Source: Streptococcus parasuis (lineage in GTDB: Bacteria > Bacillota > Bacilli > Lactobacillales > Streptococcaceae). Taken from it: 64,000 bases of DNA. The position numbers and the translations under genes were made by a program. Shown here piece after piece: positions 24,712 to 42,463 of the stretch (its first letter is position 1; each line of letters begins with the position of its first letter). The stretch covers positions 868,001-932,000 of the forward strand of contig NZ_AP024276.1 in assembly GCF_021654455.1 (NCBI RefSeq). The letters are read 5' to 3'. The notes under the pieces are model-generated. The model was not told where the DNA came from, did no database searches, and saw only the letters and a list, made by a program, of their open reading frames with translations.

Positions 24712-25395
24712 GTGAAAAGATTTAGACAAGTATTTGGACTAGCACTTCTTATCATAACTGTGTTCCTATTCCTGTATGGGATAGGTGATTTGGAAAAGGC
24801 CGAAGAAGTACGTTTACAAAGAAAAAATATTGAACAAATATTTCAAAAAAACTCAGATGCCTATGCTTGGATTCGGGTGGAAGGAACGAAAATTAACTAC
24901 CCTGTTCTGCAACATCCGACAGACGACGCCTACTATTTAACCCATGATGCAGAAGGAAATGAGACTCAGTATGGTGCTATTTTTACTGAAAGGGTAAATC
25001 AGACTAGTTTTGAGGATTCTGTGACGATTATCTATGGACATGCCATGCGTGATGATTCCATGTTTGGTAGCCTAGACTATTTAGCAGAGCCTTCTACATT
25101 TGAATCAATCCAGACAGTAACGATTACCAAAGACGGGAAAGACTTTCTATACCAGATTGTTGCAGCATATTCCTTTACTGATGATCACCTGTATCACACC
25201 TTTGGACTAGGCGATACGAAGCAGGTGGAGTCATATGTCTCTCTGTTAGAAGCCTGGGCAAATGAATATGGTGGATTCTATCGCTCGTTTGATTTTGATG
25301 TTACTCGGGATAAGTTATTGATTTTATCTACTTGTGACGTGGCAGGAAATGAGAGACGGTTTGTAGTTCATGCCGTCAGAAAAGGAGGAAGCTAA
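24712..25395 (+). CDS. Class B-like sortase
   Basis: 227-residue membrane-anchored transpeptidase. A single N-terminal hydrophobic helix (LALLIITVFLFLYGIG) is followed by the sortase fold: INYPVLQHPTDDAYYL, catalytic His110 in IIYGHAMRDDSMFGSL, Cys208 in ILSTCD and Arg215/Arg216. The TLSTC-like site and YGHxMxDxSMF box favour class B. GTG 24712 is the start because AAAGGAG ends six bases before it; an upstream ATG at 24601 has no such site and would add a non-conserved tail. It is the first gene of a tight operon ending in an RHS protein. No LPxTG-type substrate is seen nearby. Confidence 0.88.
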   Translation: MKRFRQVFGLALLIITVFLFLYGIGDLEKAEEVRLQRKNIEQIFQKNSDAYAWIRVEGTKINYPVLQHPTDDAYYLTHDAEGNETQYGAIFTERVNQTSFEDSVTIIYGHAMRDDSMFGSLDYLAEPSTFESIQTVTITKDGKDFLYQIVAAYSFTDDHLYHTFGLGDTKQVESYVSLLEAWANEYGGFYRSFDFDVTRDKLLILSTCDVAGNERRFVVHAVRKGGS

Positions 25396-25396
25396 C

Positions 25397-25996
25397 ATGG
25401 TTATTTTTAAAGAGAATAGAAAATTTTTTGAGTTTGCGATTGGATATATTTTTGTGGGTATAGGGCAAAAATTGATAGGAGTCGGTCTATTGAAACCCTG
25501 GTCTGAAAATGCTCCGGTCCTTTTGTGGCTAGGGTTGGTAGGACTTTCCTTGTTTGGGATTGGATTATTTTTTATTGGAAAATTAGCCATTTGGTTTCTA
25601 AGGCAGTTCAATCAGGAGCAACGAGTAGCGAAAGTCGTTGGTCTAGCATTAGCAGTTAGCGTGCTTGGAGGCTTGCTGCTTGGAGGATTAGGGCAGCTAA
25701 TCTATGATTACACTTCATTTGGCTATCAAGAAGTAAAAAATGCCATCTGGCTAGTGACGAGCCTATTTCAGACATTTATCAAAGTAACGGTTATCTTTAA
25801 CCTTTACTGCTTTTATAAAGATAGTAACTTTTCTTGGAAGAAGGGGGACTTCCGAAGAATAATTGCCATTGTCTTACTGGGAATTCTTATAGCAGCCAGC
25901 ATAGGATTGATATGGTCTGCCATATCAGACATCTTGTTGGGGCTTGCAGATATGATTGTTATTTTAGGGACAGTGTATTATTTACTTGAAAAATAA
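25397..25996 (+). CDS. Polytopic membrane protein of unknown function
   Basis: 199 residues with about six hydrophobic segments (starting near IGYIFVGIGQKLIG, LLWLGLVGLSLFGIG, VVGLALAVSVLGGLLLGG, IWLVTSLFQTFIKV, IIAIVLLGILIAASIG and LADMIVILGTVYYLL). No family is recognised. AAAGGAGG, inside the end of the sortase gene, sets the start at ATG 25397, one base after that gene's stop. The RHS gene starts 14 bases after its end, so all three are probably co-transcribed. A role in export or anchoring of the RHS protein is possible but unproven. Confidence 0.75.
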   Translation: MVIFKENRKFFEFAIGYIFVGIGQKLIGVGLLKPWSENAPVLLWLGLVGLSLFGIGLFFIGKLAIWFLRQFNQEQRVAKVVGLALAVSVLGGLLLGGLGQLIYDYTSFGYQEVKNAIWLVTSLFQTFIKVTVIFNLYCFYKDSNFSWKKGDFRRIIAIVLLGILIAASIGLIWSAISDILLGLADMIVILGTVYYLLEK

Positions 25997-26010
25997 TTAG
26001 GATGATATAT

Positions 26011-29000
26011 ATGAAAAAGAGAAGAAAAATTGTTAGTTGGCTGATGCTTTCGACTATTTTATTGGCCAATAGTCCCCTGGTCTATGCGCAGGAAATTCAA
26101 GAAATTGTTGAAACTTCGCAAAGTCAGGCCTATTATGAAGAAGCAGTGGAGGAAGCGCGTGAGACGACTGTCGGTGGTGATAATGCAAATACAACTAATG
26201 CATCAAACTCCGACCAGACAACCGCAGCAAGTGCCACTGATGGCGGAGATGCCATTCAGCAGCCTAAAATCACTGAAGAAGGGCAAAATCCAGAAGAGGC
26301 AGCTTTACGGGCGCAGTATGGAGAACCAGTTCTCGAAAGTGGTCAAGAACAACTTTACAAGGTGGACGAGACACGCTTTGTAACCTATATTGGTAGCCAG
26401 GCTAAGACCTATATTGACCACGAGGGACGGGAAGTTCCGATTGACCTTGATCTGTATTCCTATCATGCAGATGGTACGCATTATTATCTACCGAAAGAAT
26501 CTCCTGTTGATGTAGTGCTTCCCGCTAAGGTGACCGAGACTACGCCGATTGATGTTATCAGTCAGGAAGATAAAATATCGCTCTATCCTTTGGATAAAAC
26601 CTACGAGCATGCGACTGTAGAGGACAATGCTATCCTTTATAATAACGTTGACGGTGCGACAGATGTCCAATATACAGTACAGTCAAACGGCGTTAAAGAA
26701 GAAATCGTTCTGAGTAAATGGGAAGAAAAGAACCGTTTTACTTACGTTCTAGAGGCAGGAAATTATGATGTAAGTCTTGAAACCAATCAAATCTTGGTTC
26801 GCCAAAAAGGTAAAAAAGAAATACTTTTTGTCTTAAATGCTCCTCTTATGGTGGATGCTGCAGGAGAAACCAGTCAAGATATAAAATTGGAACTGGTTGA
26901 AAAAGATGGACACTACAATATTACTGTCGTAGCAGGGAAAGAATGGTTGTCTGATAAGACACGTCACTATCCTGTTCGTATCGATCCGACCATTACTGTC
27001 CCACGGGAAAATATTCTAGATTCTGTTACCAGTACTGTACATGGTCAATACCAAGGTATATCCTATGGTTATGTCGGTTATATCACAGTTGAACTGATGG
27101 GCTTGGCAGGTGTTCCTTATGTCAAGGACTTCGGTCGTAGCCGTATGTATTTTAAGGTCAACTATGACTTTAAGCAGAATATCCCTTCAGAAGCTAAAAT
27201 TGATAGCGCAACACTCAATCTCTATGAGTACACAGCTCCTGGAAATCAGGGTACCCAGTTTGGAGCCTATCGCCTAACTGAAGATTTTGACATCAATAGT
27301 GTGACCTGGAACTCGTCTGCTAATCTCGGTCGTGAAATTGCTGGAGAAGGAGCGATTTCAACCAAAAAGGTAGGAATGCACAACTTTGATATTCGTGATG
27401 CGGTCAATGGCTGGGTGCAAGGAATCTATCCAAACTATGGTTTAGTTGTCGCTGCAACAGATGAGGGAGCAGATGGCGGTGCCTTTTATACGACTGAAGC
27501 CACAGCCTCCAATGCTGGTCAAATTGGCTTTACTCCTGAAAAAGCGCCAAGTATTACGATTAATTGGTCCGTCCCAGATCCAGTAGATATCAATTATGCT
27601 ATCGGTGATACGACTATCAATCTCCGGACAATGGTGAAGACAGATAAGTCTGGTAAACTCCAATTCCAAGGAGTTTTTGCGGATGGTCTGACTAGCCCTG
27701 CTGCACAGGTTGGCTACCAGCTCAGTGACCCTGCTAAGAATTATACTGGTCAGAGTACAGCCAGCTTTTCATACAAATACCCTGACACGGCTTCCTTTAT
27801 TTCAGCATTTGAAAAAGGAACAACACAATACAAAGATAAATTGTCTAACTGGCAAACGCTCGTTCCGTTTACAGAGCCGGAATTAAATACGCTCTATACC
27901 ATTGATGCGGAAAGCCAGAAAGATGGTCAAACGAGTGGGAAGAAGAGTAGTGACTCTTTCATCATTTACAAGGTAACCCAATATGATACTCTTCCTAAGA
28001 TAGCCAGCTACTATGGCGTACCGCTAAAACAGATTGCCTTTGACAACCGGATTCAAGATATGCTTCTGGTCAAAAACAACACACTCTTTATCCGCAATCC
28101 AAGTAAAAATGCGAACAAGCCTTATAACCCACCTGCTCTGACTGATAAGGTCAAAGCCGACGTGGATATGCTGTTGATGGGACGTGGCTTACACTGTGAA
28201 TTTGGTTTTGAACCGATAAATCTTAATACAGGTAATTTCTACTTGGAACGGACAGATGTATCTATCTCAGACCTAGGTGGAGACTTTGCGATTGTCCGCA
28301 ATTATAACTCCAAAGCAGCAGGTATCAATAGTCTATTTGGTCGAGGATGGTCTTTTGCCTTCAACGAACAACTTTCACTTGATGACGAGGGCAATATTAA
28401 CTATATCCGTACAGATGGTTCTATTTTGACCTTTATCAAAGAAGGTGATACCTATAAGGCGCCAGAGGGCTATGATCTAAGCTTGACGGTAAAGGAAATA
28501 GAGACTAAAAAAGCTGATTTTGGGAATGGCGAAGAGGATTACGCTGTCAAGGAATACCACATTACCGATAGCAATCAGCAGGAAAAAATCTTCAATTTCC
28601 ATGGGCTCTTGACCAGTCAAACAGATGAAAAAGGGAATAAAACTAGCCTTTCCTATAACGAACAGGCTCAACTGACTAAGATTACATCACCGACAGGTCT
28701 TGTATATGGTGTGACCCAAAATGATTCAGGCTATATCGGAGCAATCCAGTTACCGAATGGTTTGACACTAGCTTATGACTATGATGAAGCGGGAAATCTT
28801 ATTTCTTACACGGACGCAGCAGGAGCTAAGACGCGTTACGACTATGACGAACAAGGGCGGATGATAGCTTGGTATGATGCCAATGGGACCAAGATTATCG
28901 AGAATGTCTATGATGAACAGCATCGTGTCATCCAGCAGACTGACGGAACAGGAGCAGTCTCCACTCTTTCCTATAGTGATGGACAGACAGTAACGACAGA

Positions 29001-32000
29001 TGCTAATGGTCAAGTGACGACTTATACCTATGACAAACATTATCGTACAACAGCCATTACTTATCCTGATGGAAGCAGTATTCGTAAGGCTTATGACGAT
29101 GATAACCGCTTAGTGAGTGAGACCAATGAATTGGGTCAAACGACTAGCTACACTCACGATAGTCAAGGAAATATTCTCACGGAAACTCGTTTTGACGGAG
29201 CGGTCAAAACCTCTACTTATGACCAAAACAACCATCTCCTTTCCGTAACAGATTTTGCAGGACAGACTACTAGCCATACTTATGATGCGAAAGGAAACCT
29301 TCTTTCTACAAGTTTGGCAGACGGTACTAGCATTACCCACACAGTTGATGAGCAAGGACGCATTCTTTCAACCACCGATGCTCTAGGAAACACAGTCCAG
29401 CTATCCTATGATGGGGCTAATTTGGTCAAAGTGACCAATGCAGCTGGTGGAGTGACCACTCTTACCTATAACGCTCATAATCAAGTCACCTCCATCACCA
29501 ACCCTCGTGGTGGTGTGACAACGATGACCTATGATGCCGAAGGTCGTAAACTAAGTGAAAAAGATGCGGATGGTGTCGGTACAAGTCAGACATTTGACCC
29601 AGCAGGGCAAGTGATTGCAGTGACCGAAGGAAATGGGAATACTAGCAGCTTTACTTACGATGCCTTTGGACGCAAGATTGCGGCAAGTAACGGTGAAGGT
29701 GGTCAGTATAACTACGAGTATGATGGTGTTGGAAACCTCCTTCGTTTGACAGATGCCGAAGGCCGTACGACGAGCTATAGTTATGATAGCAGGGGTCGTC
29801 TTCTGACAGAGACGGATGCTGCTGGACAAAAGGTGCATTACAAACGTGACGCAATTGGTCGTGTCTTGGAACGGACCAATGAAGCTGGTCAGACAACATC
29901 ATATACCTATGATGAGACAGTCAACCAAATCGCAAGCATTACAGATGCTTTAGGGCAGGTGACCAGCTATAGCTATGACAAGGCAGGGAATGTGACTCAA
30001 GTCACCTATCCAATTGGTACGAGTACGACCAGCACTTACGATGCTTTAGGTCGTCGTCTCAGCTACCAAGACCAAGCAGGCCGCACGGTTAGCTATACAT
30101 ACGATGCGCTAGGAAATAAACTGACCGAAAGCCTGGATGAACGTACGACCAGCTATAGCTACGATGTACTTGGTAATGTGACCAAGGTCATCTATCCAGA
30201 TAAGACGAGCGTTTCCTACCGATATGATAGCATGGGAAATGTTCTCGAGCAGACAGATGCCAAGGGCATATCCACTCAGTATGACTATACTGCCGCTGGT
30301 CGTTTGAGCAGTACGACAAATGCTCTCGGTCAAATAACCACGATGACCTATGATGCGAACGGAAATCAAATCAGCTTGACCGATGCGGCAGGAAATACTG
30401 CCAGCACACGCTATACAGGGCAAAACCAAGTTGGTCAAGTCACCGATGCACTTGGTCATACAACTCACTTTAGCTACAACCAAATGGAGCAACTTCGTGA
30501 GGAAATTGATGCTCTAGGTGGAAAAACAAGCTATCAGTATAATGAACTTGGCTACCTGACCCAAGTGACCAATCCAAATGGTCATGCAACTCAGCTGAGC
30601 TATACCCCAACGGCTCAGGTTAAAGAAGTTATCCAGGCAGATGGCAGTAGTATTGTCAATGAATACGATGCTCTTGATCGCCTCATTAAGGAGACGCAGT
30701 CTAGCGGTCTCATTACTGAGTATAGCTATGATGCTGCCAATCGTCTGATAGCTGCGAAGGATAATCAATCTCTAAATGAAAGTTACACCTATGACGCTGC
30801 AGGCAATCGCCTGACGACAACCAACAGCCTTGGTCAGACCACAAGCATGACCTATGACAGCTACAATCAGTTGACCAAGGTCACTTATGCAGATGGAAGT
30901 AGTGAAAGCTACACCTATGATTTATCAGGTAATCTAGCGACTAAGACGGATGTAGAAGGATATGAGACTAGCTACCATTATGATGAAAATGGAAATTTAC
31001 AGAAGAAGGTAGACCATCTTGGACGTGAAACCAGCTACAGTTATGACCAACTCAACCGTGTCGTGACAGAAACGGACCCTGAGGGGCATGAGACCAACTA
31101 TGAGTACGATGTATTGGGGAATGTCGCAAGTGTCACAGATGCCAACGGACACCAATCTACCTACGGATATGATGCTAATGAACGCCTGGTTCTATACAAA
31201 GATCCAAAGGGACAGGAAACCGTCCTGAAATACGACCCACTCGGTCGCTTACTGGAGACAGTGGCTCCTACAGGTGCCAGCCAGACCTACACTTACGACG
31301 CAGTGGGCAATCGTCTGTCTGAAACAACAGGCGAGGGAAATACCACTAGCTATACCTACGATAGTCTCAACCGTCTGCTTAGCCTAACCAAGCCAACTGG
31401 CGGTAAGACAAGCTATACCTATGACCAAACTGGTAGTCTCTCGACAGAGACAGACCCGAGTGGGGATGTGACAAGCTATGTCAATGACCTCTACGGTCGT
31501 GCGACTAGTCGAACTCTTCCAAATCAGGCGACTTTCAGCTATAGTTATGACGCTCTTGGTCGTCTGGAGAAACAGACGGCGCCACAAGGCTTGTCCAAGA
31601 CCTATACCTACGATGTAGCTGGTAATCTTATCAAGGAAGTAGACCAGTCGGATCGAGGGACTAGCTACAGCTACGATGTTGCCGGTCGTCTCTTGACGGA
31701 GAAGAATGCTCTGGATCTAGAAAAGACCTATGCCTACGATGAGATGGGCAATCTGACCAGCATCACCAGTCCGAGCGGTGCTAAGACCAATCTGTCCTAT
31801 ACGAAGCTGGATCAGCTTAAAACGATCACCAGTCCGACAGGTCGTGAGACAGAGCTGAGCTATGATCCTGTAGGGCAAGTGACCAAGCGAGTCATCAATG
31901 GTAAGCGGGAGACAACCTATGCCTATGACCCAAATGGCAACCTCCTAGAGGAAGTCAACCCACTTGGTCAGGTGACCAAGCGAACCTACGATGCAGGCAA

Positions 32001-35000
32001 TCGTCTGACAGCCGAGACCAATACCGCAGGTCAGACCAGTCTCTATAGTTATGACAAGGATAACCGCCTAACCAAGGTGTCCAGTCCTACAGGCGCAAGC
32101 AGTAGCCTCACCTATGATGGCAATGGCAATCTAACCAGTGTTCTCTCAGGAAGCAAGCGCCTTTCCAGCTACACCTACGACCAAGAAGACCAACTACTGA
32201 CCGCCACCAAGGGAAGTGGTGATGAAGCATCAACCAGCAGCTACACCTATGATAGTGTGGGCAATCTCACCTCCATCACCAATGGCAATGGTCAGGTGAC
32301 GAAGTATAGCTATGACCAGCTAGGAAATGTCATCGAAAAGATGAATGCGCTGGGAGACAGCGAGACCTACACCTACGATGTCAATAACCAACTCTCCAAG
32401 ATTACTAAGGCTGATGGTCAGACCATTAGCTACGACTACAACAAGCTGGACCAACTGCTGACCAAGAAGACTTCTACCGAGTCAGAAGGTCAGGTCCTCT
32501 ACAGCTATGATGCGGATGGTCGCAGAGTGGCGATGAGTGACTTGACGGGTCAGACCCGCTACGCTTATAATGAAGAGGGTGAATTGACCGGTGTTCGTCA
32601 GGGTGATGGCAGTCTGATTACCTACACCTACGACGACTATGGCAATCTCACCAAGATGGTCTATCCAGATGGTAGCGAGGTAGCCTATAGCTATGACGAG
32701 CTCGATCGCCTGACCAAGGTGACCGACCGTGACGGCAAGGTGACCACCTACGCCTATGATAAGGCTGGTGACATGACCAAGATTGAGCGTGGAGATGGCA
32801 CGACAAGTGCTCTGACCTACGACGCAGCCCATCGTGTGACAGAGATTGTTCATCGTGACAAGAAAGGCAAGCTGATTTCCAGCTATGCCTACGAGTACGA
32901 CGATGGCAACTACATCGCCAAGGAGACCATCACGCAGAATGGGGAAACTCTGGTCCAAACTTACACCTACGATAGTCTAGGTCAAATCGTCCAGATGACC
33001 GTTTCAAGTAAGGATGGCAAGGAACTAAGTCAGTTTAGCTACACCTATGACCATGCAGGAAACAAGCTGACCAGCACGGAGACGGTGGATGGTAAGGAAA
33101 GCAAGACAGAGTTTAGCTATGATGCCGAGAATCGCCTGCTTGAAATGAAGTCTGGCGACAAGACCATCACCTACACCTATGATAAGAATGGCAACCGCAC
33201 ATCGTCTGGTGCTGGTGATGCCAAGCTGGACTATATCTATGACACGGAAAATCGCTTACTTGCGGTCAAGGATAAGGAAGGCCTGCTTTTCGCTGCCCTC
33301 TATGATGGGGATGATAACCGTGTCTTCACTGCCAGCAGGACCCAAGCGACCAACACCTACCAGCTCTTCAAACGCAAGCCAGCGGATAAGAAGCGCAAAT
33401 CTCCGTATACTGCACCAGATGGCGAAGCCAACAGTCTCTTCTGGTATGGGTTCACGCAGAATGTCGTCCAGTTCTTCTCGAGCTTCACGACCAGTGAGGG
33501 CTATGACTGGATTGAAACCTTCGATACCGTCTCAACTGCCTATCATCAGAAGGTAGCCAAGGACCGAGCGACGGAAGAAGGGCTTGTGGTCAATCCGCCG
33601 AGCGAGGACAACCTACCGGGTGAAGACGAGGTGCTCTACAGGAGTCAAGTGCAGGATGTCCTCATCCCTTACACGACCAAGGAAGATACCTACAACTATT
33701 ACGAAACCCGAAACTATGTCAACGATGTCAATCAGCAGCACACCCAAGTCCTGCAAACCTATGACGACCAGCTCCAGAAACAGGAGACCTATGTCTATGG
33801 CAATGGCAGAGCTACCTATACTAACGAGAGCACTGGCGACAGCTATCACTATCTGACCAGCCAGTCTGGCTCTGTGACAGGTCTGACTCAGAATGGCAAT
33901 TCTGTTGCATCTAGCTCTTACAATCTCTACGGAGCGACCAAACAGACCACAGATACCACAGGCAATCCATTTGCCTACAATGGCGAAGCACGGGATGTGA
34001 CAGGTTTGGACTACCTCCGTGCACGATACTATGACAACCAAGCAGGCACCTTCCTGACGGCTGACAGCTACCAAGGTAGTCAAACAGACCCGATCAGTCA
34101 AAATCTCTATGCCTATGTGCAGAACAACCCAGCCAACTATACCGATCCGAGCGGGCATATCTGGAAGGCTTTGACAAATGCATATAATACTGCTAAAAAA
34201 GCAGTGTCCAAGGTCAATAACGCCGCTAAGAAAGTAGTTGTCGATACCTATAATACTGTCAAAAAAGCAGTGGTAAACACCTATAACACCATTAAGAGCG
34301 CAGTCGGTCACGCAGTCAACTGGGCTGGCAATGCGGTAAGGCAGACTACTAATTGGATTGGGCAGCAATGGAATAATTTCCAAACCTCGGCTTACCAAGC
34401 GGGTAGAAGTATATATAACAGCGCTAGTCAATATGTCTCTCACCAATACCAGCAAGCAAAGCAAACCGTTTCAAATGCATGGGAACAGGCTAAAGCAATG
34501 GGGCAATCTGTTTATAACTGGGGAGTATCTAAGTCGAGAGAGGCAATGAATATTGCACGTAGTTGGACGAAATCATTGGAAGAAACTTTCCGACATAGTT
34601 GTGAAACTGCAAGCTTTGCGAATGGCGGAACTACTGTATATGCTAGTGAGATAGATTTTACGAGTGTAAAAAATACAGCTCAAGATCTCCGTCTTCAGAG
34701 TGAGATAGAAGATGCAAAAAACAGCAAGCTTTCCGATATAGAAAAGTCTGACTTGATTGTAAAAGCATACGAAGATTATCTCTACAATAAAAATAAAGAG
34801 GCGTTTGATGAATATTGGAGTGCTAGGAAAGGATACAAACAATGGAAACCTGAAAATGGAAACTATGCTGACACTGTGGAGAGACGACTTGGAAGAAAAC
34901 TACAAAATTCAGGTATTAATATGAAAGAGCTCATGCAGGAAATGGGCGATGAAATCCTATCTGCCAACTCTAATGCTAGCTATATTCCATTCGTGGCGGG

Positions 35001-35400
35001 AAGTAAAGTATCGGCAAGTATTCAAGATAATTACCAGTTTTATAATTTAGTTAATACTGGACAGCCCTTGGATTTAAAGAGCAGGGCTTATCAATCCGAT
35101 GGAGATAAAGGATATTCAATATGGAGTAGAGATTGGGGGGATGGAGTCAAGGATGATTATGCAGGAAATTATCTATATGGCTATGTTGGAAAAGGTTATC
35201 TAAATTCTTCGGATACTTATCTAAAAATTTCAGCAGGCGCTGCACAAGAAATGTCAGATATTAAAAAAATGGGACTTTTTGCAGCGGACTGGAAAGCATT
35301 TAAGAGTTTTATAACGGGTAATTATTTTGATAATTCTGGAGACTCGAAGATGATACAAGATGGAATAGATGATTATAAACTTAAAGGAGGTAGCGAATAG
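26011..35400 (+). CDS. Giant secreted RHS/YD-repeat wall-associated protein with C-terminal polymorphic toxin domain
   Basis: 3129 residues. In order: signal peptide (1-26, cut near VYA-QE); an acidic Ser/Thr/Gln-rich stretch; a DNRLRE/CBM-like beta domain (~330-525); a LysM-like domain (~650-700); a DUF6531 module (~730-810: GFEPINLNTGNFYLER); several dozen YD repeats (TSYTYD-type, ~860-2430); the RHS core (YLRARYYDNQAGTFLTAD to NYTDPSG, ~2650-2717); and a variable ~410-residue tip. The tip has an amphipathic helical stretch and ends in a domain I recognise as polymorphic toxin type 44 (FYNLVNTGQPLDLKSR; DDYAGNYLYGYVGKGY; ISAGAAQEM, ~3000-3090). No LPxTG motif is visible. The architecture is that of WapA-like contact-dependent toxins, where YD repeats form a shell around the tip. 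ATG 26011 has AGGA; an ATG nine bases earlier is badly placed. Confidence 0.92.
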   Translation: MKKRRKIVSWLMLSTILLANSPLVYAQEIQEIVETSQSQAYYEEAVEEARETTVGGDNANTTNASNSDQTTAASATDGGDAIQQPKITEEGQNPEEAALRAQYGEPVLESGQEQLYKVDETRFVTYIGSQAKTYIDHEGREVPIDLDLYSYHADGTHYYLPKESPVDVVLPAKVTETTPIDVISQEDKISLYPLDKTYEHATVEDNAILYNNVDGATDVQYTVQSNGVKEEIVLSKWEEKNRFTYVLEAGNYDVSLETNQILVRQKGKKEILFVLNAPLMVDAAGETSQDIKLELVEKDGHYNITVVAGKEWLSDKTRHYPVRIDPTITVPRENILDSVTSTVHGQYQGISYGYVGYITVELMGLAGVPYVKDFGRSRMYFKVNYDFKQNIPSEAKIDSATLNLYEYTAPGNQGTQFGAYRLTEDFDINSVTWNSSANLGREIAGEGAISTKKVGMHNFDIRDAVNGWVQGIYPNYGLVVAATDEGADGGAFYTTEATASNAGQIGFTPEKAPSITINWSVPDPVDINYAIGDTTINLRTMVKTDKSGKLQFQGVFADGLTSPAAQVGYQLSDPAKNYTGQSTASFSYKYPDTASFISAFEKGTTQYKDKLSNWQTLVPFTEPELNTLYTIDAESQKDGQTSGKKSSDSFIIYKVTQYDTLPKIASYYGVPLKQIAFDNRIQDMLLVKNNTLFIRNPSKNANKPYNPPALTDKVKADVDMLLMGRGLHCEFGFEPINLNTGNFYLERTDVSISDLGGDFAIVRNYNSKAAGINSLFGRGWSFAFNEQLSLDDEGNINYIRTDGSILTFIKEGDTYKAPEGYDLSLTVKEIETKKADFGNGEEDYAVKEYHITDSNQQEKIFNFHGLLTSQTDEKGNKTSLSYNEQAQLTKITSPTGLVYGVTQNDSGYIGAIQLPNGLTLAYDYDEAGNLISYTDAAGAKTRYDYDEQGRMIAWYDANGTKIIENVYDEQHRVIQQTDGTGAVSTLSYSDGQTVTTDANGQVTTYTYDKHYRTTAITYPDGSSIRKAYDDDNRLVSETNELGQTTSYTHDSQGNILTETRFDGAVKTSTYDQNNHLLSVTDFAGQTTSHTYDAKGNLLSTSLADGTSITHTVDEQGRILSTTDALGNTVQLSYDGANLVKVTNAAGGVTTLTYNAHNQVTSITNPRGGVTTMTYDAEGRKLSEKDADGVGTSQTFDPAGQVIAVTEGNGNTSSFTYDAFGRKIAASNGEGGQYNYEYDGVGNLLRLTDAEGRTTSYSYDSRGRLLTETDAAGQKVHYKRDAIGRVLERTNEAGQTTSYTYDETVNQIASITDALGQVTSYSYDKAGNVTQVTYPIGTSTTSTYDALGRRLSYQDQAGRTVSYTYDALGNKLTESLDERTTSYSYDVLGNVTKVIYPDKTSVSYRYDSMGNVLEQTDAKGISTQYDYTAAGRLSSTTNALGQITTMTYDANGNQISLTDAAGNTASTRYTGQNQVGQVTDALGHTTHFSYNQMEQLREEIDALGGKTSYQYNELGYLTQVTNPNGHATQLSYTPTAQVKEVIQADGSSIVNEYDALDRLIKETQSSGLITEYSYDAANRLIAAKDNQSLNESYTYDAAGNRLTTTNSLGQTTSMTYDSYNQLTKVTYADGSSESYTYDLSGNLATKTDVEGYETSYHYDENGNLQKKVDHLGRETSYSYDQLNRVVTETDPEGHETNYEYDVLGNVASVTDANGHQSTYGYDANERLVLYKDPKGQETVLKYDPLGRLLETVAPTGASQTYTYDAVGNRLSETTGEGNTTSYTYDSLNRLLSLTKPTGGKTSYTYDQTGSLSTETDPSGDVTSYVNDLYGRATSRTLPNQATFSYSYDALGRLEKQTAPQGLSKTYTYDVAGNLIKEVDQSDRGTSYSYDVAGRLLTEKNALDLEKTYAYDEMGNLTSITSPSGAKTNLSYTKLDQLKTITSPTGRETELSYDPVGQVTKRVINGKRETTYAYDPNGNLLEEVNPLGQVTKRTYDAGNRLTAETNTAGQTSLYSYDKDNRLTKVSSPTGASSSLTYDGNGNLTSVLSGSKRLSSYTYDQEDQLLTATKGSGDEASTSSYTYDSVGNLTSITNGNGQVTKYSYDQLGNVIEKMNALGDSETYTYDVNNQLSKITKADGQTISYDYNKLDQLLTKKTSTESEGQVLYSYDADGRRVAMSDLTGQTRYAYNEEGELTGVRQGDGSLITYTYDDYGNLTKMVYPDGSEVAYSYDELDRLTKVTDRDGKVTTYAYDKAGDMTKIERGDGTTSALTYDAAHRVTEIVHRDKKGKLISSYAYEYDDGNYIAKETITQNGETLVQTYTYDSLGQIVQMTVSSKDGKELSQFSYTYDHAGNKLTSTETVDGKESKTEFSYDAENRLLEMKSGDKTITYTYDKNGNRTSSGAGDAKLDYIYDTENRLLAVKDKEGLLFAALYDGDDNRVFTASRTQATNTYQLFKRKPADKKRKSPYTAPDGEANSLFWYGFTQNVVQFFSSFTTSEGYDWIETFDTVSTAYHQKVAKDRATEEGLVVNPPSEDNLPGEDEVLYRSQVQDVLIPYTTKEDTYNYYETRNYVNDVNQQHTQVLQTYDDQLQKQETYVYGNGRATYTNESTGDSYHYLTSQSGSVTGLTQNGNSVASSSYNLYGATKQTTDTTGNPFAYNGEARDVTGLDYLRARYYDNQAGTFLTADSYQGSQTDPISQNLYAYVQNNPANYTDPSGHIWKALTNAYNTAKKAVSKVNNAAKKVVVDTYNTVKKAVVNTYNTIKSAVGHAVNWAGNAVRQTTNWIGQQWNNFQTSAYQAGRSIYNSASQYVSHQYQQAKQTVSNAWEQAKAMGQSVYNWGVSKSREAMNIARSWTKSLEETFRHSCETASFANGGTTVYASEIDFTSVKNTAQDLRLQSEIEDAKNSKLSDIEKSDLIVKAYEDYLYNKNKEAFDEYWSARKGYKQWKPENGNYADTVERRLGRKLQNSGINMKELMQEMGDEILSANSNASYIPFVAGSKVSASIQDNYQFYNLVNTGQPLDLKSRAYQSDGDKGYSIWSRDWGDGVKDDYAGNYLYGYVGKGYLNSSDTYLKISAGAAQEMSDIKKMGLFAADWKAFKSFITGNYFDNSGDSKMIQDGIDDYKLKGGSE

Positions 35401-35402
35401 AA

Positions 35403-35888
35403 ATGAAAAATAACTCGTTTTTTAAGTGGTGTTTTTTGTCTATTTTAATAGTATTTCTGATATTTTTGTACATTCAGATGAACAGTACAACCTATATTTT
35501 ACAACCTAATTCAGAAAGAAAAGTGATAATTAAGGGAAATTCAGAGAGTTTAGATTCTGTCATTAGTGTTACTATAACAAGTAAGACTGATGATGGGAAG
35601 ATTAAGTTAATATGTGGAGATAGTTGGGTTGACACTAAAGAGGATGTTCACTATAACATTATTACTTCTCAAATCGAAAAATGGAACTATGATTCATCTT
35701 CAGGAAAGAGAACGGTAATGATTTTACAAAATCCACTAAATGGTATTAAAGTGGATGAAGAAGGTATAAGCATAAATACTCCAAAAGATATTACATTTAG
35801 TTTTCAATCAAAAAAAGACTTTACTGTAAGAATCAAGAATTTATCAGATAAGAATGTATCAGTCGAAGTTAATGTAGTATATAGGTGA
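35403..35888 (+). CDS. Membrane-anchored small protein, cassette 1 (paralogue of the 36833 gene)
   Basis: 161 residues: one N-terminal hydrophobic helix (CFLSILIVFLIFLYI) and a short, probably beta-rich extracellular part. It begins two bases after the RHS stop, with AAAGGAGG inside the RHS end, so translation is coupled. It shares with the product of 36833-37336 the pattern IKGN-x2-LD, DGKI/NGKI, I-x-KW and SPKDFS-like KDFTV plus V-x-N-V-x-Y ends. I do not recognise the family. Position suggests an immunity or accessory protein for the RHS toxin. Confidence 0.65.
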   Translation: MKNNSFFKWCFLSILIVFLIFLYIQMNSTTYILQPNSERKVIIKGNSESLDSVISVTITSKTDDGKIKLICGDSWVDTKEDVHYNIITSQIEKWNYDSSSGKRTVMILQNPLNGIKVDEEGISINTPKDITFSFQSKKDFTVRIKNLSDKNVSVEVNVVYR

Positions 35889-36010: not shown

Positions 36011-36598
36011 ATGAAACATATAATTAAAGTTCTAATCCTTGTTCTAGCTATTGTCGTAGTTTATCTAACATATAATTACTATCAATTTCGTAATCCAATA
36101 GATGAAATTATCTATTCAGAGATGACAAGTATAAAAGTTATTCCGATAAAATCGTATAGTCAGCTTATAAAAAGTGATACCAGTTATGATTTTTCTGATA
36201 ATACAGGATTTGTGACTCTACACTATAAATTGCGCGAGTTACTCAAACCAGAAGAAACAGTAACAGTGTATATGGACGATACAAAAGGTTTCATTTTCTC
36301 GTACCAGCATGACTTCAAAAATGGTAGGAAATTACAGATAAATTATATATATGATGGCGTTGAGAATGTCACACAGTCTATTGTTGTAATTGAGAATGAC
36401 GGTAGCGAAAAAAAGACTCGAGAAGAGATATTAGACTTGTTGAGAGATGATGACCTTGATAGTACATGGCTTAGTAGACAATCAACCTATGTCTGGAAGA
36501 CATTGTTGCTGTCGGTTTGGTTTGAAAAAGGTAGCCACCGATATTCCTTTGATAATATAGGGAACATTCAGATTATCAAATCAAATATCCTTGGGTGA
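36011..36598 (+). CDS. TipC-like putative immunity protein, cassette 1
   Basis: 195 residues with an N-terminal membrane anchor (IIKVLILVLAIVVVYLTY) followed by N-P-I-D-E-I-I-Y-S-E and a soluble domain ending in TWLSRQSTYVW...VWFEKGSHRYSFDNIGNIQII. This ending closely matches the product of 37639-38364. The layout, with a membrane anchor and an extracellular domain, resembles the TipC family that protects against the TelC lipid II phosphatase of S. intermedius. The assignment comes from pattern memory and from its place after a type-44 toxin tip, not from a search. GGAGGGGG precedes ATG 36011. Confidence 0.6.
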   Translation: MKHIIKVLILVLAIVVVYLTYNYYQFRNPIDEIIYSEMTSIKVIPIKSYSQLIKSDTSYDFSDNTGFVTLHYKLRELLKPEETVTVYMDDTKGFIFSYQHDFKNGRKLQINYIYDGVENVTQSIVVIENDGSEKKTREEILDLLRDDDLDSTWLSRQSTYVWKTLLLSVWFEKGSHRYSFDNIGNIQIIKSNILG

Positions 36599-36740: not shown

Positions 36741-36831
36741 GAAATCATCTAGACTTTTTCTAGGTGATTTCTTTTTTTGTGTTAAAATAAATGTGTAGAC
36801 CTTTGATAACAAAATATCAGGTGGAAACTGT
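36741..36831 (+). repeat. 91-bp direct repeat, copy 1 (terminator plus promoter/RBS module)
   Basis: It is ~85% identical to 37496-37586. It starts with a terminator hairpin (GAAATCATCTAGA with CTAGGTGATTTC, then T's), continues with an A/T-rich -10-like TTAAAATAAAT and ends in the ribosome site AGGTGG used by the gene at 36833. Confidence 0.8.
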
Positions 36832-36832
36832 A

Positions 36833-37336
36833 ATGAATTTAATAAAAAATAAGAAGAACTACTTTCTGTGTGTTCTTGCAATCTTTCTAGTACTATTTAT
36901 TACTATTACTTGCTCAAGAGTTTTTTCAAATAATGTGTATTATTTAGATGCAGGAGGGAGAATTGAATTAAATATTAAGGGAAACTATGATAATCTTGAT
37001 GCATATATGACGTTTGAGATTGCTAGTGAGTCGAAAAATGGAAAGATACGACTATCAGGTAGAAATATTTTGGCAGATATAGACTCCAATATTATTTATA
37101 ATATTGAAAAACAGCAAATTGAAAAATGGATAGATACAGATAACGACGGGGTATCAGAATTAACTATTTTACCAAATGATACTTCGCAAAGTATATATAT
37201 AGATTCAAAAGGACTTGTTATAAAGCTACCGAATCAATATCGTTTTTCAATAAATTCTCCTAAAGATTTTTCAATTGTAGTTGAGAATATATCAAATACT
37301 TCAGTATCGTTTTTTAAAAATGTAAAATATAACTAG
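36833..37336 (+). CDS. Membrane-anchored small protein, cassette 2 (paralogue of the 35403 gene)
   Basis: 167 residues with one N-terminal hydrophobic helix (YFLCVLAIFLVLFITITC) and a compact extracellular part that aligns with the 35403 gene (NIKGNYDNLDAY; NGKIRLSG; QIEKW; SPKDFSIVVENIS). ATG 36833 is chosen because AGGTGG lies eight bases upstream within the direct repeat; an in-frame ATG at 36791 falls inside that repeat. Function unknown. A Cys at the end of the hydrophobic helix is not in a clear lipobox. Confidence 0.65.
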   Translation: MNLIKNKKNYFLCVLAIFLVLFITITCSRVFSNNVYYLDAGGRIELNIKGNYDNLDAYMTFEIASESKNGKIRLSGRNILADIDSNIIYNIEKQQIEKWIDTDNDGVSELTILPNDTSQSIYIDSKGLVIKLPNQYRFSINSPKDFSIVVENISNTSVSFFKNVKYN

Positions 37337-37638
37337 TAGGTTAGGTTGTTGCGGATACCTACGATGCCTTCCTGTTTTACAATATACAATAATTATTTTA
37401 CAGATTAAGTACTTATTGGCTTATGCTAAAGTATTGGTGAGGGGCAGTCGGATTAGTTTTAACATTTGAAACGCTATCAATAATTTTATCGACTTGAAAT
37501 CATCTAGACTTTTCTAGGTGATTTCTTTTTGGTATGGTAGAATAAATTTGTAAATTTTTGATAACAAAATATCAGGTGGAAACTGTTAAGTCGCTCATCA
37601 ATTTATTCAAGATTTGAGCCAATGATGTGGAGGTATAT
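37337..37638. other. Intergenic stretch with the second copy of the direct repeat
   Basis: About 300 bases between cassette genes. The only recognisable content is the repeat at 37496-37586. No supported gene lies between 37337 and 37495, and the segment may be decayed coding sequence. Confidence 0.5.
37496..37586 (+). repeat. 91-bp direct repeat, copy 2
   Basis: It matches copy 1 at 36741-36831, including the terminator hairpin, the A/T-rich segment and AGGTGG. Here no gene starts at the ribosome site; the next gene uses its own GGAGG 43 bases later. Confidence 0.8.
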
Positions 37639-38364
37639 ATGAAGCATAAATTTTCAAAATATTTTTTTATAATTGTCATAATTGTCACGAGCTCATTTCT
37701 GATTTTTAAAGTTTTTAATTACTATAGTCAGAAGATAAAATATAATTCCTTAGAGAATGTATTCTTAGAGATGAACTATGCCGAGGTATATAGTGGGGCA
37801 CTGAAAGGCTTACCAGATTTGAGTACTGTTTTAGGAAGTCCGCAATCATTTAGAGAACCAGATAGAATAACAGAGTTGCCCGTTCTTGTTAATGCCCCAG
37901 ATGGAGGGGAGGTATCTATATTTGTTGGTCTGGAACAAGCGTTCAGTATTGAGTATTCAAAAAAATTAGGGAATGATACTTATTTATATATAGACTATGA
38001 GTATAGGGATAAGAAATTACTAGGAAGCATTGAAATTTCCAATTCAGATGATTCATTGGCGTGGGGAGAATCAGGTTATTGGATAGATAAAAAAAGAGGT
38101 GAAACGGTCAATTTGCAAGAATATTTAGAGAGTACCTATTGGTTTTCTTCCTCCAAAGGTCTCCCTTCTTTGCAATTAACTGAAAAAGAAGAAGTATTAA
38201 ATTATTTGAAAACGTATGGTATAGATGCTACTTGGTTAAGGGAAAAATCATCCTATATTTTGAATGATGTTGTTCTCAAGACTTGGTTTGAAAAGGGGAG
38301 TCAACGATATTCCTTTGACAATCTTGGGGATGTTAAAATTATAGAATCAAGTGTATTAAAATGA
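37639..38364 (+). CDS. TipC-like putative immunity protein, cassette 2
   Basis: 241 residues: an N-terminal membrane helix (FFIIVIIVTSSFLIFKVF), then NVFLEMNYAEVYSG and a long soluble domain. The last ~50 residues (DATWLREKSSYIL...KTWFEKGSQRYSFDNLGDVKII) parallel the cassette 1 protein, while the middle has diverged and is ~45 residues longer. This pattern suits immunity proteins diversified to match different toxin variants. GGAGG at 37629 sets the start at ATG 37639. Family call as for the 36011 gene: inferred, not searched. Confidence 0.6.
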   Translation: MKHKFSKYFFIIVIIVTSSFLIFKVFNYYSQKIKYNSLENVFLEMNYAEVYSGALKGLPDLSTVLGSPQSFREPDRITELPVLVNAPDGGEVSIFVGLEQAFSIEYSKKLGNDTYLYIDYEYRDKKLLGSIEISNSDDSLAWGESGYWIDKKRGETVNLQEYLESTYWFSSSKGLPSLQLTEKEEVLNYLKTYGIDATWLREKSSYILNDVVLKTWFEKGSQRYSFDNLGDVKIIESSVLK

Positions 38365-38653: not shown

Positions 38654-39397
38654 ATGAGCAAACGTAAAATTATATCAAGTTTATTTTTAAGTGCTACCGT
38701 ATTGGGAGGATTGCTGTTTACACAGACACCAACCGTAAAAGCAATTGAGTTAGAGGATGCACAAACCATGAGTACTAGCAGTGCACAAGCACCGATTTTT
38801 TCACCCGGGGATCTTATTCAAGAAACTAATCATACTGCTCAGTTTAGAAATTCTGTATCTATTGCTGCAACTAATGGAACATCTGAAAAAGAAGTAATCT
38901 GGAAGGTGAAATTTGATTCGACCTATTGGAATTTTAAATATGATAAAGGAGGGTACTACTTTGTTGTTCCTTCAGGTATGAAATTGAAGCGAATTACTCT
39001 GGTTAACGGTCAAACGAGAGAGGAATTGCTTGATCGTTTTCCTAAAAATATAAATGATAATAATAGTTCAAATAGTTCTTATCGTTTATTTAAGAGAGGG
39101 GAAAATACCTACGATGATCGTGACTTCGATAGTCAGTGGGGATGGTCAGTTGGACGAGCAAGTAATGATAAGATAAATCAATGGAAAAATGAAAATGCTT
39201 TTTCTGATATCTATTATATCGATAGTCCTCGCCATGCAGGTCCAGTAACTTATGAATTGGAGGCAGAAGTAACTGATCAAACTAAAACTTCCTTCCCTCT
39301 GGTAGCGGTAATGAAAAACTTCTATGCTAGAACATCATACTTTAGCGAACCAACTTCGCTTGCAGGACTTGATGTGAAAGTTGAATGGCCGAAATAA
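38654..39397 (+). CDS. Secreted protein of unknown function
   Basis: 247 residues with a clear signal peptide (KRK, then IISSLFLSATVLGGLLF, cut near VKA-IE at about residue 31). The mature part is rich in Trp, Tyr, Asn and Asp (WKVKFDSTYWNFKYDKGGYY; DSQWGWSVGRASNDK) with a beta-strand-like rhythm and no anchor. I recognise no family. It stands alone behind AGAAGGAG and ends before a terminator. Location next to the toxin cassettes suggests accessory DNA, but no functional link is shown. Confidence 0.75.
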   Translation: MSKRKIISSLFLSATVLGGLLFTQTPTVKAIELEDAQTMSTSSAQAPIFSPGDLIQETNHTAQFRNSVSIAATNGTSEKEVIWKVKFDSTYWNFKYDKGGYYFVVPSGMKLKRITLVNGQTREELLDRFPKNINDNNSSNSSYRLFKRGENTYDDRDFDSQWGWSVGRASNDKINQWKNENAFSDIYYIDSPRHAGPVTYELEAEVTDQTKTSFPLVAVMKNFYARTSYFSEPTSLAGLDVKVEWPK

Positions 39398-41572: not shown

Positions 41573-42463
41573 TTAGGCGACGGCCTTGTTCCTCATTTCA
41601 AGAGGGGCAAGGCCGTTGTTGCGTTCTTGAAATCGTTGATGATTATAAAAATAGATGTAGGCATCAATATCTGACACCAGCTCCTCAAAAGTCTTATACT
41701 TCTTCAAATCATAGCACTCCGTCTTAAAGTGCCCAAAGAAACTCTCAATTGGTGCATTGTCAATACACTTGCCAACACGAGACATGGAGCGGGTCATCTG
41801 ATACTTGGTCGTTAAACGGTAATAATCTTTCGAAGTATATTGTGAACCTCGGTCGCTGTGAATCAATGGTGTCGCTTCAGGATTAGCTTTTCGGGCTTTA
41901 CGAAGTGTTTCTAATACCAATTCATTATCATTCAACTGACCGACCACATAAGCGACAATTGAGCCGTCGTAGAGGTCCTTAATAGCACTCAAATAGGCCT
42001 TACAACTGAGACCGTACTTCAAGAAAGTCACATCTGTACACCATTTCTGATTGGGGGCAGTAGCTGTAAAATCACGGTTGAGAATGTTGTCTTCTACATT
42101 GACAAAGCTGGTCTTGGTACAGTAGCCCTTAGCTCTTCTGATAATGGAACGAATGCCTAAAATGTGCATCAATCGTCGAATCCGTTTCTTGTTGCAGCTT
42201 GTTCCAAGCTTGCTATTGACAAATAGCGTCATACGACGATAACCAAGAATACCATTATGTTGGATATGAAGTTCCTTGATGACATTCATCAATCCTAAAT
42301 TTTCCTGTTCAGAAGCTGTTTCCTGATGTTGTAACCACTTATAGTAGCCTGAGCGAGATACCTTTAGAATACGGCACAAGTGGCTGATAGAAGCCTCTTC
42401 CTGTTCTTCCGCATATTCTTTAATCGCTTGGAAGGATTCCAAGTGGCGACCTAGTCTTACCAT
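41573..42463 (-). CDS. IS3-family transposase OrfB (DDE integrase)
   Basis: 296 residues with an HTH_21-type start (HNGILGYRRMTLFVN) and an rve integrase core. The catalytic acids are in CTDVTFLKY, HSDRGSQYTS and the Glu of APIESFFGHFKTE, all intact. It overlaps orfA by seven bases in the -1 frame and lacks a good ribosome site, so it is expected to be made mainly as an OrfAB fusion through the slippery site at 42490-42496. Confidence 0.92.
   Translation of the reverse strand: MVRLGRHLESFQAIKEYAEEQEEASISHLCRILKVSRSGYYKWLQHQETASEQENLGLMNVIKELHIQHNGILGYRRMTLFVNSKLGTSCNKKRIRRLMHILGIRSIIRRAKGYCTKTSFVNVEDNILNRDFTATAPNQKWCTDVTFLKYGLSCKAYLSAIKDLYDGSIVAYVVGQLNDNELVLETLRKARKANPEATPLIHSDRGSQYTSKDYYRLTTKYQMTRSMSRVGKCIDNAPIESFFGHFKTECYDLKKYKTFEELVSDIDAYIYFYNHQRFQERNNGLAPLEMRNKAVA

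What the first reader, a model, noticed from the sequence alone, without database searches (positions are those of the whole stretch)
24712..35400. Sortase, membrane protein and giant RHS toxin in one operon, without a visible LPxTG substrate
Gaps of 1 and 14 bases link a class B-like sortase, a six-helix protein of unknown family and a 3129-residue RHS protein. The RHS protein has LysM, CBM-like and DUF6531 modules but no LPxTG-type signal, so the sortase has no obvious substrate. A dedicated sortase/membrane pair serving delivery or processing of a WapA-like toxin would be an undescribed export or anchoring arrangement.
Basis: partly seen in the sequence, partly recalled or inferred. Interest (0 to 1): 0.85.

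Follow-up and report, generated by a model that had tools for sequence, protein, structure and literature searches.

The report
Published streptococcal sortase–WapA toxin operon
This is a copy of a bacteria-against-bacteria toxin system already described in a pig streptococcus, in which a sortase and a small membrane protein are kept alongside a giant RHS toxin; what the sortase does chemically is still unknown.

Summary
In detail: a class B-like sortase (24712-25395), a six-helix membrane protein (25397-25996) and a 3129-residue RHS protein (26011-35400) lie 1 and 14 bases apart, without a recognisable sorting signal. It is not undescribed: Pan et al. 2025 (PMC12704120) report srtB–secF-like–wapA loci in Streptococcus suis, where losing either accessory gene impairs killing. 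The window protein carries their three cleavage motifs. Dedication holds up: in 147 genus genomes the membrane protein, this WapA N-terminus and this SrtB type sit in the same 10. One genome keeps the pair and wapA unlinked. SrtB's catalytic motifs are intact in 29 of 30 loci checked. The published SecF label was not reproduced by sequence or fold. The toxin tip is Ntox44; in 8 of 10 genus genomes with it, a relative of the gene after wapA follows directly. A sister locus carries a TelC-like tip with a TipC-family gene, so WapA shares at least this module with type VII toxins. Already known; SrtB's chemistry is the open question.

The parts
24712..25395 (+). SrtB, class B-like sortase, 227 aa, one N-terminal hydrophobic helix; catalytic motifs YGH (H110), LSTC (C208), RFVV (R216)
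25397..25996 (+). 199-aa six-helix membrane protein, the counterpart by position of the 'SecF-like' protein of PMC12704120; SecF kinship not confirmed here
26011..35400 (+). WapA/RHS polymorphic toxin, 3129 aa, hydrophobic signal-peptide-like N-terminus
27133..27513 (+). DNRLRE (CBM-like) domain of the N-terminal wall-binding region
27967..28059 (+). LysM-like stretch (weak, below Pfam cut-off)
28210..28434 (+). DUF6531, with the first cleavage motif E|PINLNTGNF (aa 734/735) at its start
   Evidence: cleavage mapped in PMC12704120
31468..31494 (+). second cleavage motif, D1819|VTSYVNDLY
   Evidence: cleavage mapped in PMC12704120
33919..34158 (+). RHS-associated core ending in TDPSGH, third cleavage site H2716|IWK
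34159..35397 (+). C-terminal toxin fragment; Ntox44 at about 35035-35376
35403..35888 (+). likely cognate immunity gene (161 aa, N-terminal hydrophobic helix), no named family
36011..36598 (+). TipC-family immunity gene, probably an orphan
36833..37336 (+). second copy of the 161-aa gene family (32% identity)
37639..38364 (+). second TipC-family immunity gene, probably an orphan

Best explanation
A polymorphic toxin locus of the published srtB–secF-like–wapA kind (probably the WapA1 kind, inferred from the cleavage motif positions). WapA leaves through Sec by its signal peptide, helped by the dedicated six-helix membrane protein (need shown for S. suis strains by Pan et al.; the way it helps is inferred). 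Outside, the RHS barrel folds around the toxin and is cut at three sites (mapped in S. suis; motifs present here). The N-terminal piece holds on to the wall. SrtB binds that piece (shown by them in vitro) and is needed for full killing. I infer that it acts as an enzyme, fixing or trimming the N-terminal piece at a non-canonical internal site, because its catalytic motifs are conserved. The released Ntox44 tip reaches a neighbour, where it probably acts at the outer face of the membrane or in the wall zone (inferred from the membrane-anchored immunity protein).
For: Genus set: membrane protein 10/147, NCWB (N-terminal wall-binding region) 10/147, close SrtB (46% identity or more, E 1.6e-60 or better) in the same 10; apart from one short fragment in G023, the next sortases have at most 33% identity and E 2e-19 or worse. 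Order set: membrane protein 11/395 and SrtB at E<=1e-40 11/395, same genomes; NCWB in 48/340, those same 11 strongly (E<=1.3e-115) and 37 weakly. In 13 of 13 named Streptococcus loci a wapA frame starts right after membrane protein and sortase; several of these are imperfect (see full report). In G223 the pair and wapA are unlinked but both present. Catalytic motifs in 29 of 30 loci checked. Cleavage motifs at 734, 1820, 2717. Among 8 sister loci whose ends were read, 7 different C-terminal endings by eye (L067 and L069 alike). Ntox44 in 10/177 genus genomes, with a 161-aa-type gene within 93 bases downstream in 8 of them, the window included. Paper PMC12704120: abstract, passages, sections 20, 22, 23, 26 read.
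Against: No sorting signal of a known type is conserved: loosely LPxTG-like columns in the NCWB are no more frequent than for scrambled patterns (2 columns against a mean of 1.7; 70 of 120 orderings as good). Pan et al. detected no change of WapA in the wall fraction of the srtB mutant. Some WapA copies have no adjacent pair (L021, L033 and the cut-off L035 in G059), though that genome has a pair elsewhere. The 161-aa gene family is wider than Ntox44: 25/177 genomes have it, 16 of them without an Ntox44 match. Ntox44 has been called a nuclease (PMC7790226, one passage), which would need entry into the cytoplasm. The window's species is inferred, not read from a record.
Confidence: 0.8

Rival explanations
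1. SrtB is a scaffold or chaperone for WapA export and folding, not a transpeptidase acting on it.
For: Pan et al. show binding of SrtB to the LysM/DNRLRE part and say their data are insufficient to show anchoring; no known sorting motif; no localisation change detected in the srtB mutant.
Against: His, Cys and Arg motifs intact in 29 of 30 loci checked, including three in other genera (L099-L101); a scaffold would not need them.
Confidence: 0.3
2. SrtB's true substrate is a protein elsewhere in the genome; the operon only shares expression.
For: The genome has 11 Gram_pos_anchor matches at E<=0.001 and 8 sortase matches.
Against: In the sampled genomes this SrtB type occurs only where this WapA type occurs; none of the 11 anchor matches lies in the window; SrtB binds WapA in vitro (PMC12704120).
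Confidence: 0.08
3. The membrane protein is a true SecF-derived translocation helper, as Pan et al. propose.
For: Their model superposition with a SecF homologue (described; figure not seen); hhalign with a SecF profile 14.3% probability, score 28.0, above 14 other multi-helix frames used as single-sequence controls (best 1.0%, score 21.4); SecD/SecF not found in this genome at E<=10, leaving room for one.
Against: SecF and SecD profiles match each other at 96% in the same test; no SecD_SecF match in 11 members at E<=10 nor in the genome; no SecF among the 50 PDB rows shown for either model, the better one (pLDDT 75.6, pTM 0.72) being of the L066 homologue; global hhalign gives 0.2%.
Confidence: 0.25
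4. Co-occurrence is hitch-hiking of adjacent genes on a mobile island rather than function.
For: Patchy distribution; integrase-like frames by eye near L069 and L074.
Against: Pair retained when unlinked in G223; deletion phenotypes of both genes (PMC12704120).
Confidence: 0.05

Closest known systems
srtB–secF-like–wapA loci of Streptococcus suis (Pan et al. 2025, PMC12704120)
   Same: Gene order, N-terminal region with signal peptide, DNRLRE, LysM, DUF6531, the three cleavage motifs, variable C-terminus with downstream immunity genes.
   Different: The window tip is Ntox44; that word does not occur in the paper's main text. The paper's 15 CT types could not be matched: figures are not held and supplement look-ups were not on offer.
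WapA of Bacillus subtilis (recalled; also described in PMC12704120)
   Same: Sec-exported, wall-associated RHS toxin with polymorphic tip.
   Different: B. subtilis itself was not tested. The 37 order-level genomes with only a distant N-terminal match are not among those positive for the SrtB/membrane pair.
TelC/TipC of Streptococcus intermedius (PMC5555719, PMC6193138, PMC12419801; passages, and one section of the second, read)
   Same: Two TipC-family genes downstream in the window; sister locus L067 has a tip matching PDB 5ukh at E 2.4e-20, which is the TelC entry, followed directly by a TipC-family gene.
   Different: TelC is delivered by the type VII system on an LXG protein; in L067 the carrier is WapA. 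The window's own tip is Ntox44, not TelC.
SecD/SecF (PF02355)
   Same: Multi-helix membrane protein proposed to help export.
   Different: No family match, no convincing profile or fold match.

Membership tests
srtB–secF-like–wapA system | sortase, membrane gene, wapA in this order and strand | tested here: met
   13 of 13 named loci
srtB–secF-like–wapA system | three RHS cleavage motifs (PINLNTGNF, VTSYVNDLY, IWK) | tested here: met
   P735, V1820, I2717; the paper gives the residues before the cuts as E735, D1819, H2716, so the first is one off (E734 here); the third motif reads IWKALTNAY here, IWKTLTNAY in the paper
srtB–secF-like–wapA system | both accessory genes needed for killing | not testable with these tools
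   shown in S. suis K56-WJ and WUSS351 (PMC12704120)
class B sortase (TIGR03064) | catalytic His, Cys, Arg | tested here: met
class B sortase (TIGR03064) | score over the curated cut-off | tested here: not met
   128.2 against 153.75 bits
class B sortase (TIGR03064) | operon-borne substrate with a C-terminal sorting signal | tested here: not met
SecF (PF02355) | family sequence match | tested here: not met
   the model matches 57 of 61 class genomes as a control
SecF (PF02355) | shared fold | tested here: inconclusive
   models of pLDDT 66.5 (window protein) and 75.6 (L066 homologue); no PDB match at E<=0.001
Ntox44 (PF15607) | score over gathering cut-off | tested here: met
   34.3 against 24 bits on the C-terminal piece
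TipC immunity (NF033863) | score over cut-off | tested here: met
   96.0 and 124.3 against 30 bits
TipC immunity (NF033863) | adjacent TelC toxin | tested here: not met
   the window tip is Ntox44 and 5ukh (TelC) is not among its sequence matches at E<=10; adjacent in L067

The most novel reading that the evidence does not exclude
SrtB is a working transpeptidase whose only substrate lacks any C-terminal sorting signal: it attaches the self-cleaved N-terminal fragment of WapA to a cell-wall precursor at an internal, non-canonical site, and its partner is a new six-helix export factor unrelated to SecF. Two short stretches before the first self-cleavage site are the places to look: xPFT[EDN]P (aa 618) and [KQ]PYNPP (aa 703), each in 14 of 14 SrtB-linked and 0 of 5 unlinked proteins aligned. 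The regions around them are generally well conserved among the linked proteins, so this is a lead, not a test.
Probability: 0.2. Interest if true: 0.7.

Novelty: already known. Interest (0 to 1): 0.35.

Why it matters
It is independent support, from sampled genomes, that a class B-like sortase and a membrane protein are dedicated to one giant toxin type. It questions the SecF label and leaves a sharp open problem: a sortase with intact catalytic motifs and no recognisable sorting signal. The TelC/TipC module in a sister locus, and the Ntox44 module here, suggest that WapA and type VII (LXG-like) toxins draw on one pool of tips and immunity genes.

Tried and rejected
Looked for a conserved sortase motif in the NCWB of 14 linked and 5 unlinked WapA proteins: two loosely LPxTG-like columns, not above scrambled patterns. 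Looked for a nearby LPxTG substrate: none credible in the window; 11 Gram_pos_anchor matches in the genome, none in the window. Tested SecF kinship by family model, solved-structure sequences, profile alignment and two models: not convincing. In one search the membrane profile held 12 sequences, SecF 30, SecD only 7 cut by position; the controls were single mechanical reading frames, so both are rough. The viral fold library gave nothing below E 0.16. The window tip had only chance-like matches among solved structures. Three literature searches for the system each found only PMC12704120; searches for Ntox44 gave no function paper by title, and one passage each of PMC3482391 and PMC7790226 was seen. 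The order-level draws were 395 and 340 genomes; I could not confirm that each of the 37 weak NCWB genomes was in the 395 draw. Sets hold one genome per species, so strain variation was not sampled. In one search, 30 of the sortase loci held were checked, some being the same gene fetched twice; L070 fails because its SrtB frame ends early. Names given by eye and recalled, from no call: integrase-like, tet(M)-like, map-, galE- and HAD-like frames, IS3-type.

Full report
The window lies at 868001-932000 of a 2.197 Mb single-contig genome, whose named relatives at this locus are all Streptococcus. The sortase matches Sortase (PF04203) and the class B model, the latter below its cut-off. Ntox44 was found only when the C-terminal piece was scanned alone.

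The arrangement is in print. Pan et al. 2025 (PMC12704120; [quoted passage not shown] suis. Deleting secF-like impairs killing and makes WapA undetectable in the wall fraction. Deleting srtB impairs killing, with no detected change of WapA in the wall fraction. SrtB binds the LysM/DNRLRE part of WapA. WapA is cut at three sites. All three motifs are present in the window protein, at E734/P735, D1819/V1820 and H2716/I2717; the paper numbers the first Glu 735.

Dedication was tested on genomes. In 147 genus genomes the membrane protein is in 10, the WapA N-terminal region in 10 and this SrtB type in the same 10, with a clear gap to other sortases. At order level the membrane protein is in 11 of 395 and SrtB in 11 of 395, the same genomes; the N-terminal region is in 48 of 340, the same 11 strongly and 37 weakly. 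None of those 37 is among the membrane- or SrtB-positive genomes, though I could not confirm that each was in the 395 draw. The 13 named loci have the three genes in order. They are not all intact: the SrtB frame is short in L070, the wapA frame breaks early in L072, wapA is interrupted in L074, wapA frames change at masked stretches in L066 and L069, and several are cut by the contig or locus end. In G223 (another genus) the SrtB/membrane pair and wapA are on different contigs with different neighbours (by eye map- and galE-like after the pair, an oppositely directed HAD-like gene before wapA): retention without linkage argues for function. It is one draft genome. G059 has extra WapA copies without an adjacent pair (L021, L033, and the cut-off L035).

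The sortase keeps its His, Cys and Arg motifs in 29 of 30 loci checked, so it is probably an enzyme. No known sorting signal was found. Two columns of the N-terminal region look loosely LPxTG-like in at least 12 of 14 linked proteins, but scrambled patterns do as well (mean 1.7 columns). Two stretches, xPFT[EDN]P and [KQ]PYNPP, are in 14 of 14 linked and 0 of 5 unlinked proteins; this is only a lead. The chemistry of SrtB remains open, as Pan et al. also say.

The membrane protein has six long helices in both models: pLDDT 66.5 for the window protein and 75.6 for its L066 homologue. The published SecF-like label was not reproduced: no SecD_SecF match in 11 members or in the genome, while 57 of 61 class genomes match that model. 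Profile alignment with SecF gives 14% probability, against 96% for SecF with SecD and at most 1.0% for 14 single-sequence controls. No SecF is among the 50 PDB rows shown for either model, and no match reaches E 0.001. A remote kinship is possible but not shown.

The tip and its immunity genes. Ntox44 is found in 10 of 177 genus genomes. A relative of the 161-aa gene that follows wapA is found in 25 of 177, 16 of them without an Ntox44 match. In 8 of the 10 Ntox44 genomes, the window's included, such a gene lies within 93 bases downstream; in G040 the two are 2.9 kb apart, and G564 has no match, though a frame with a similar ending (L181) follows its toxin. The Ntox44 match holds a stop in G121, G060 and G040. 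Three of these toxin frames (485-557 residues) were scanned: each has Ntox44, and one also an LXG-like N-terminus (21.4 bits, under the 26.5 cut-off). Two TipC-family genes further down the window look like orphans. In the sister locus L067 a tip matching PDB 5ukh, the TelC entry, is followed directly by a TipC-family gene. WapA and type VII toxins thus seem to share tips and immunity genes; the TelC/TipC case is the firmer of the two. All four immunity-like proteins in the window have an N-terminal hydrophobic helix, which suggests action outside the cytoplasm. For TipC that location is shown in S. intermedius (PMC6193138, passages and section 8 read). For Ntox44 it is my inference, and one paper calls it a nuclease (PMC7790226, one passage).

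What remains interesting is the sortase without a known sorting signal and a membrane partner that may not be SecF.

Noticed in passing
window 36741-36831 and 37496-37586: Two near-identical terminator-like stems, each followed by a repeated 60-base leader (85%), sit before the second 161-type gene and the second TipC gene; they look like relics of cassette insertion.
   Followed up: partly
window 38654-39397: A 247-aa exported-looking protein without a Pfam (E<=0.01) or NCBIfam (E<=0.1) match follows the immunity genes.
   Followed up: no
window 41573-42463: Transposase (rve, HTH_21; IS3-type by recall) on the minus strand downstream of the locus.
   Followed up: no
L074 11450-14162; L109: wapA is interrupted after about 280 residues by an element with a gene that looks by eye like a tet(M)-type ribosomal protection gene. 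Described only.
   Followed up: no
L067 11701-12923: WapA with a TelC-like tip followed directly by a TipC-family gene: a type VII-type toxin/immunity pair on a WapA carrier.
   Followed up: partly
G023:C1:495687-495881: A fragment 45% identical to part of this SrtB with a stop inside, in a genome without a membrane-protein or WapA N-terminal match: perhaps a decayed locus.
   Followed up: no
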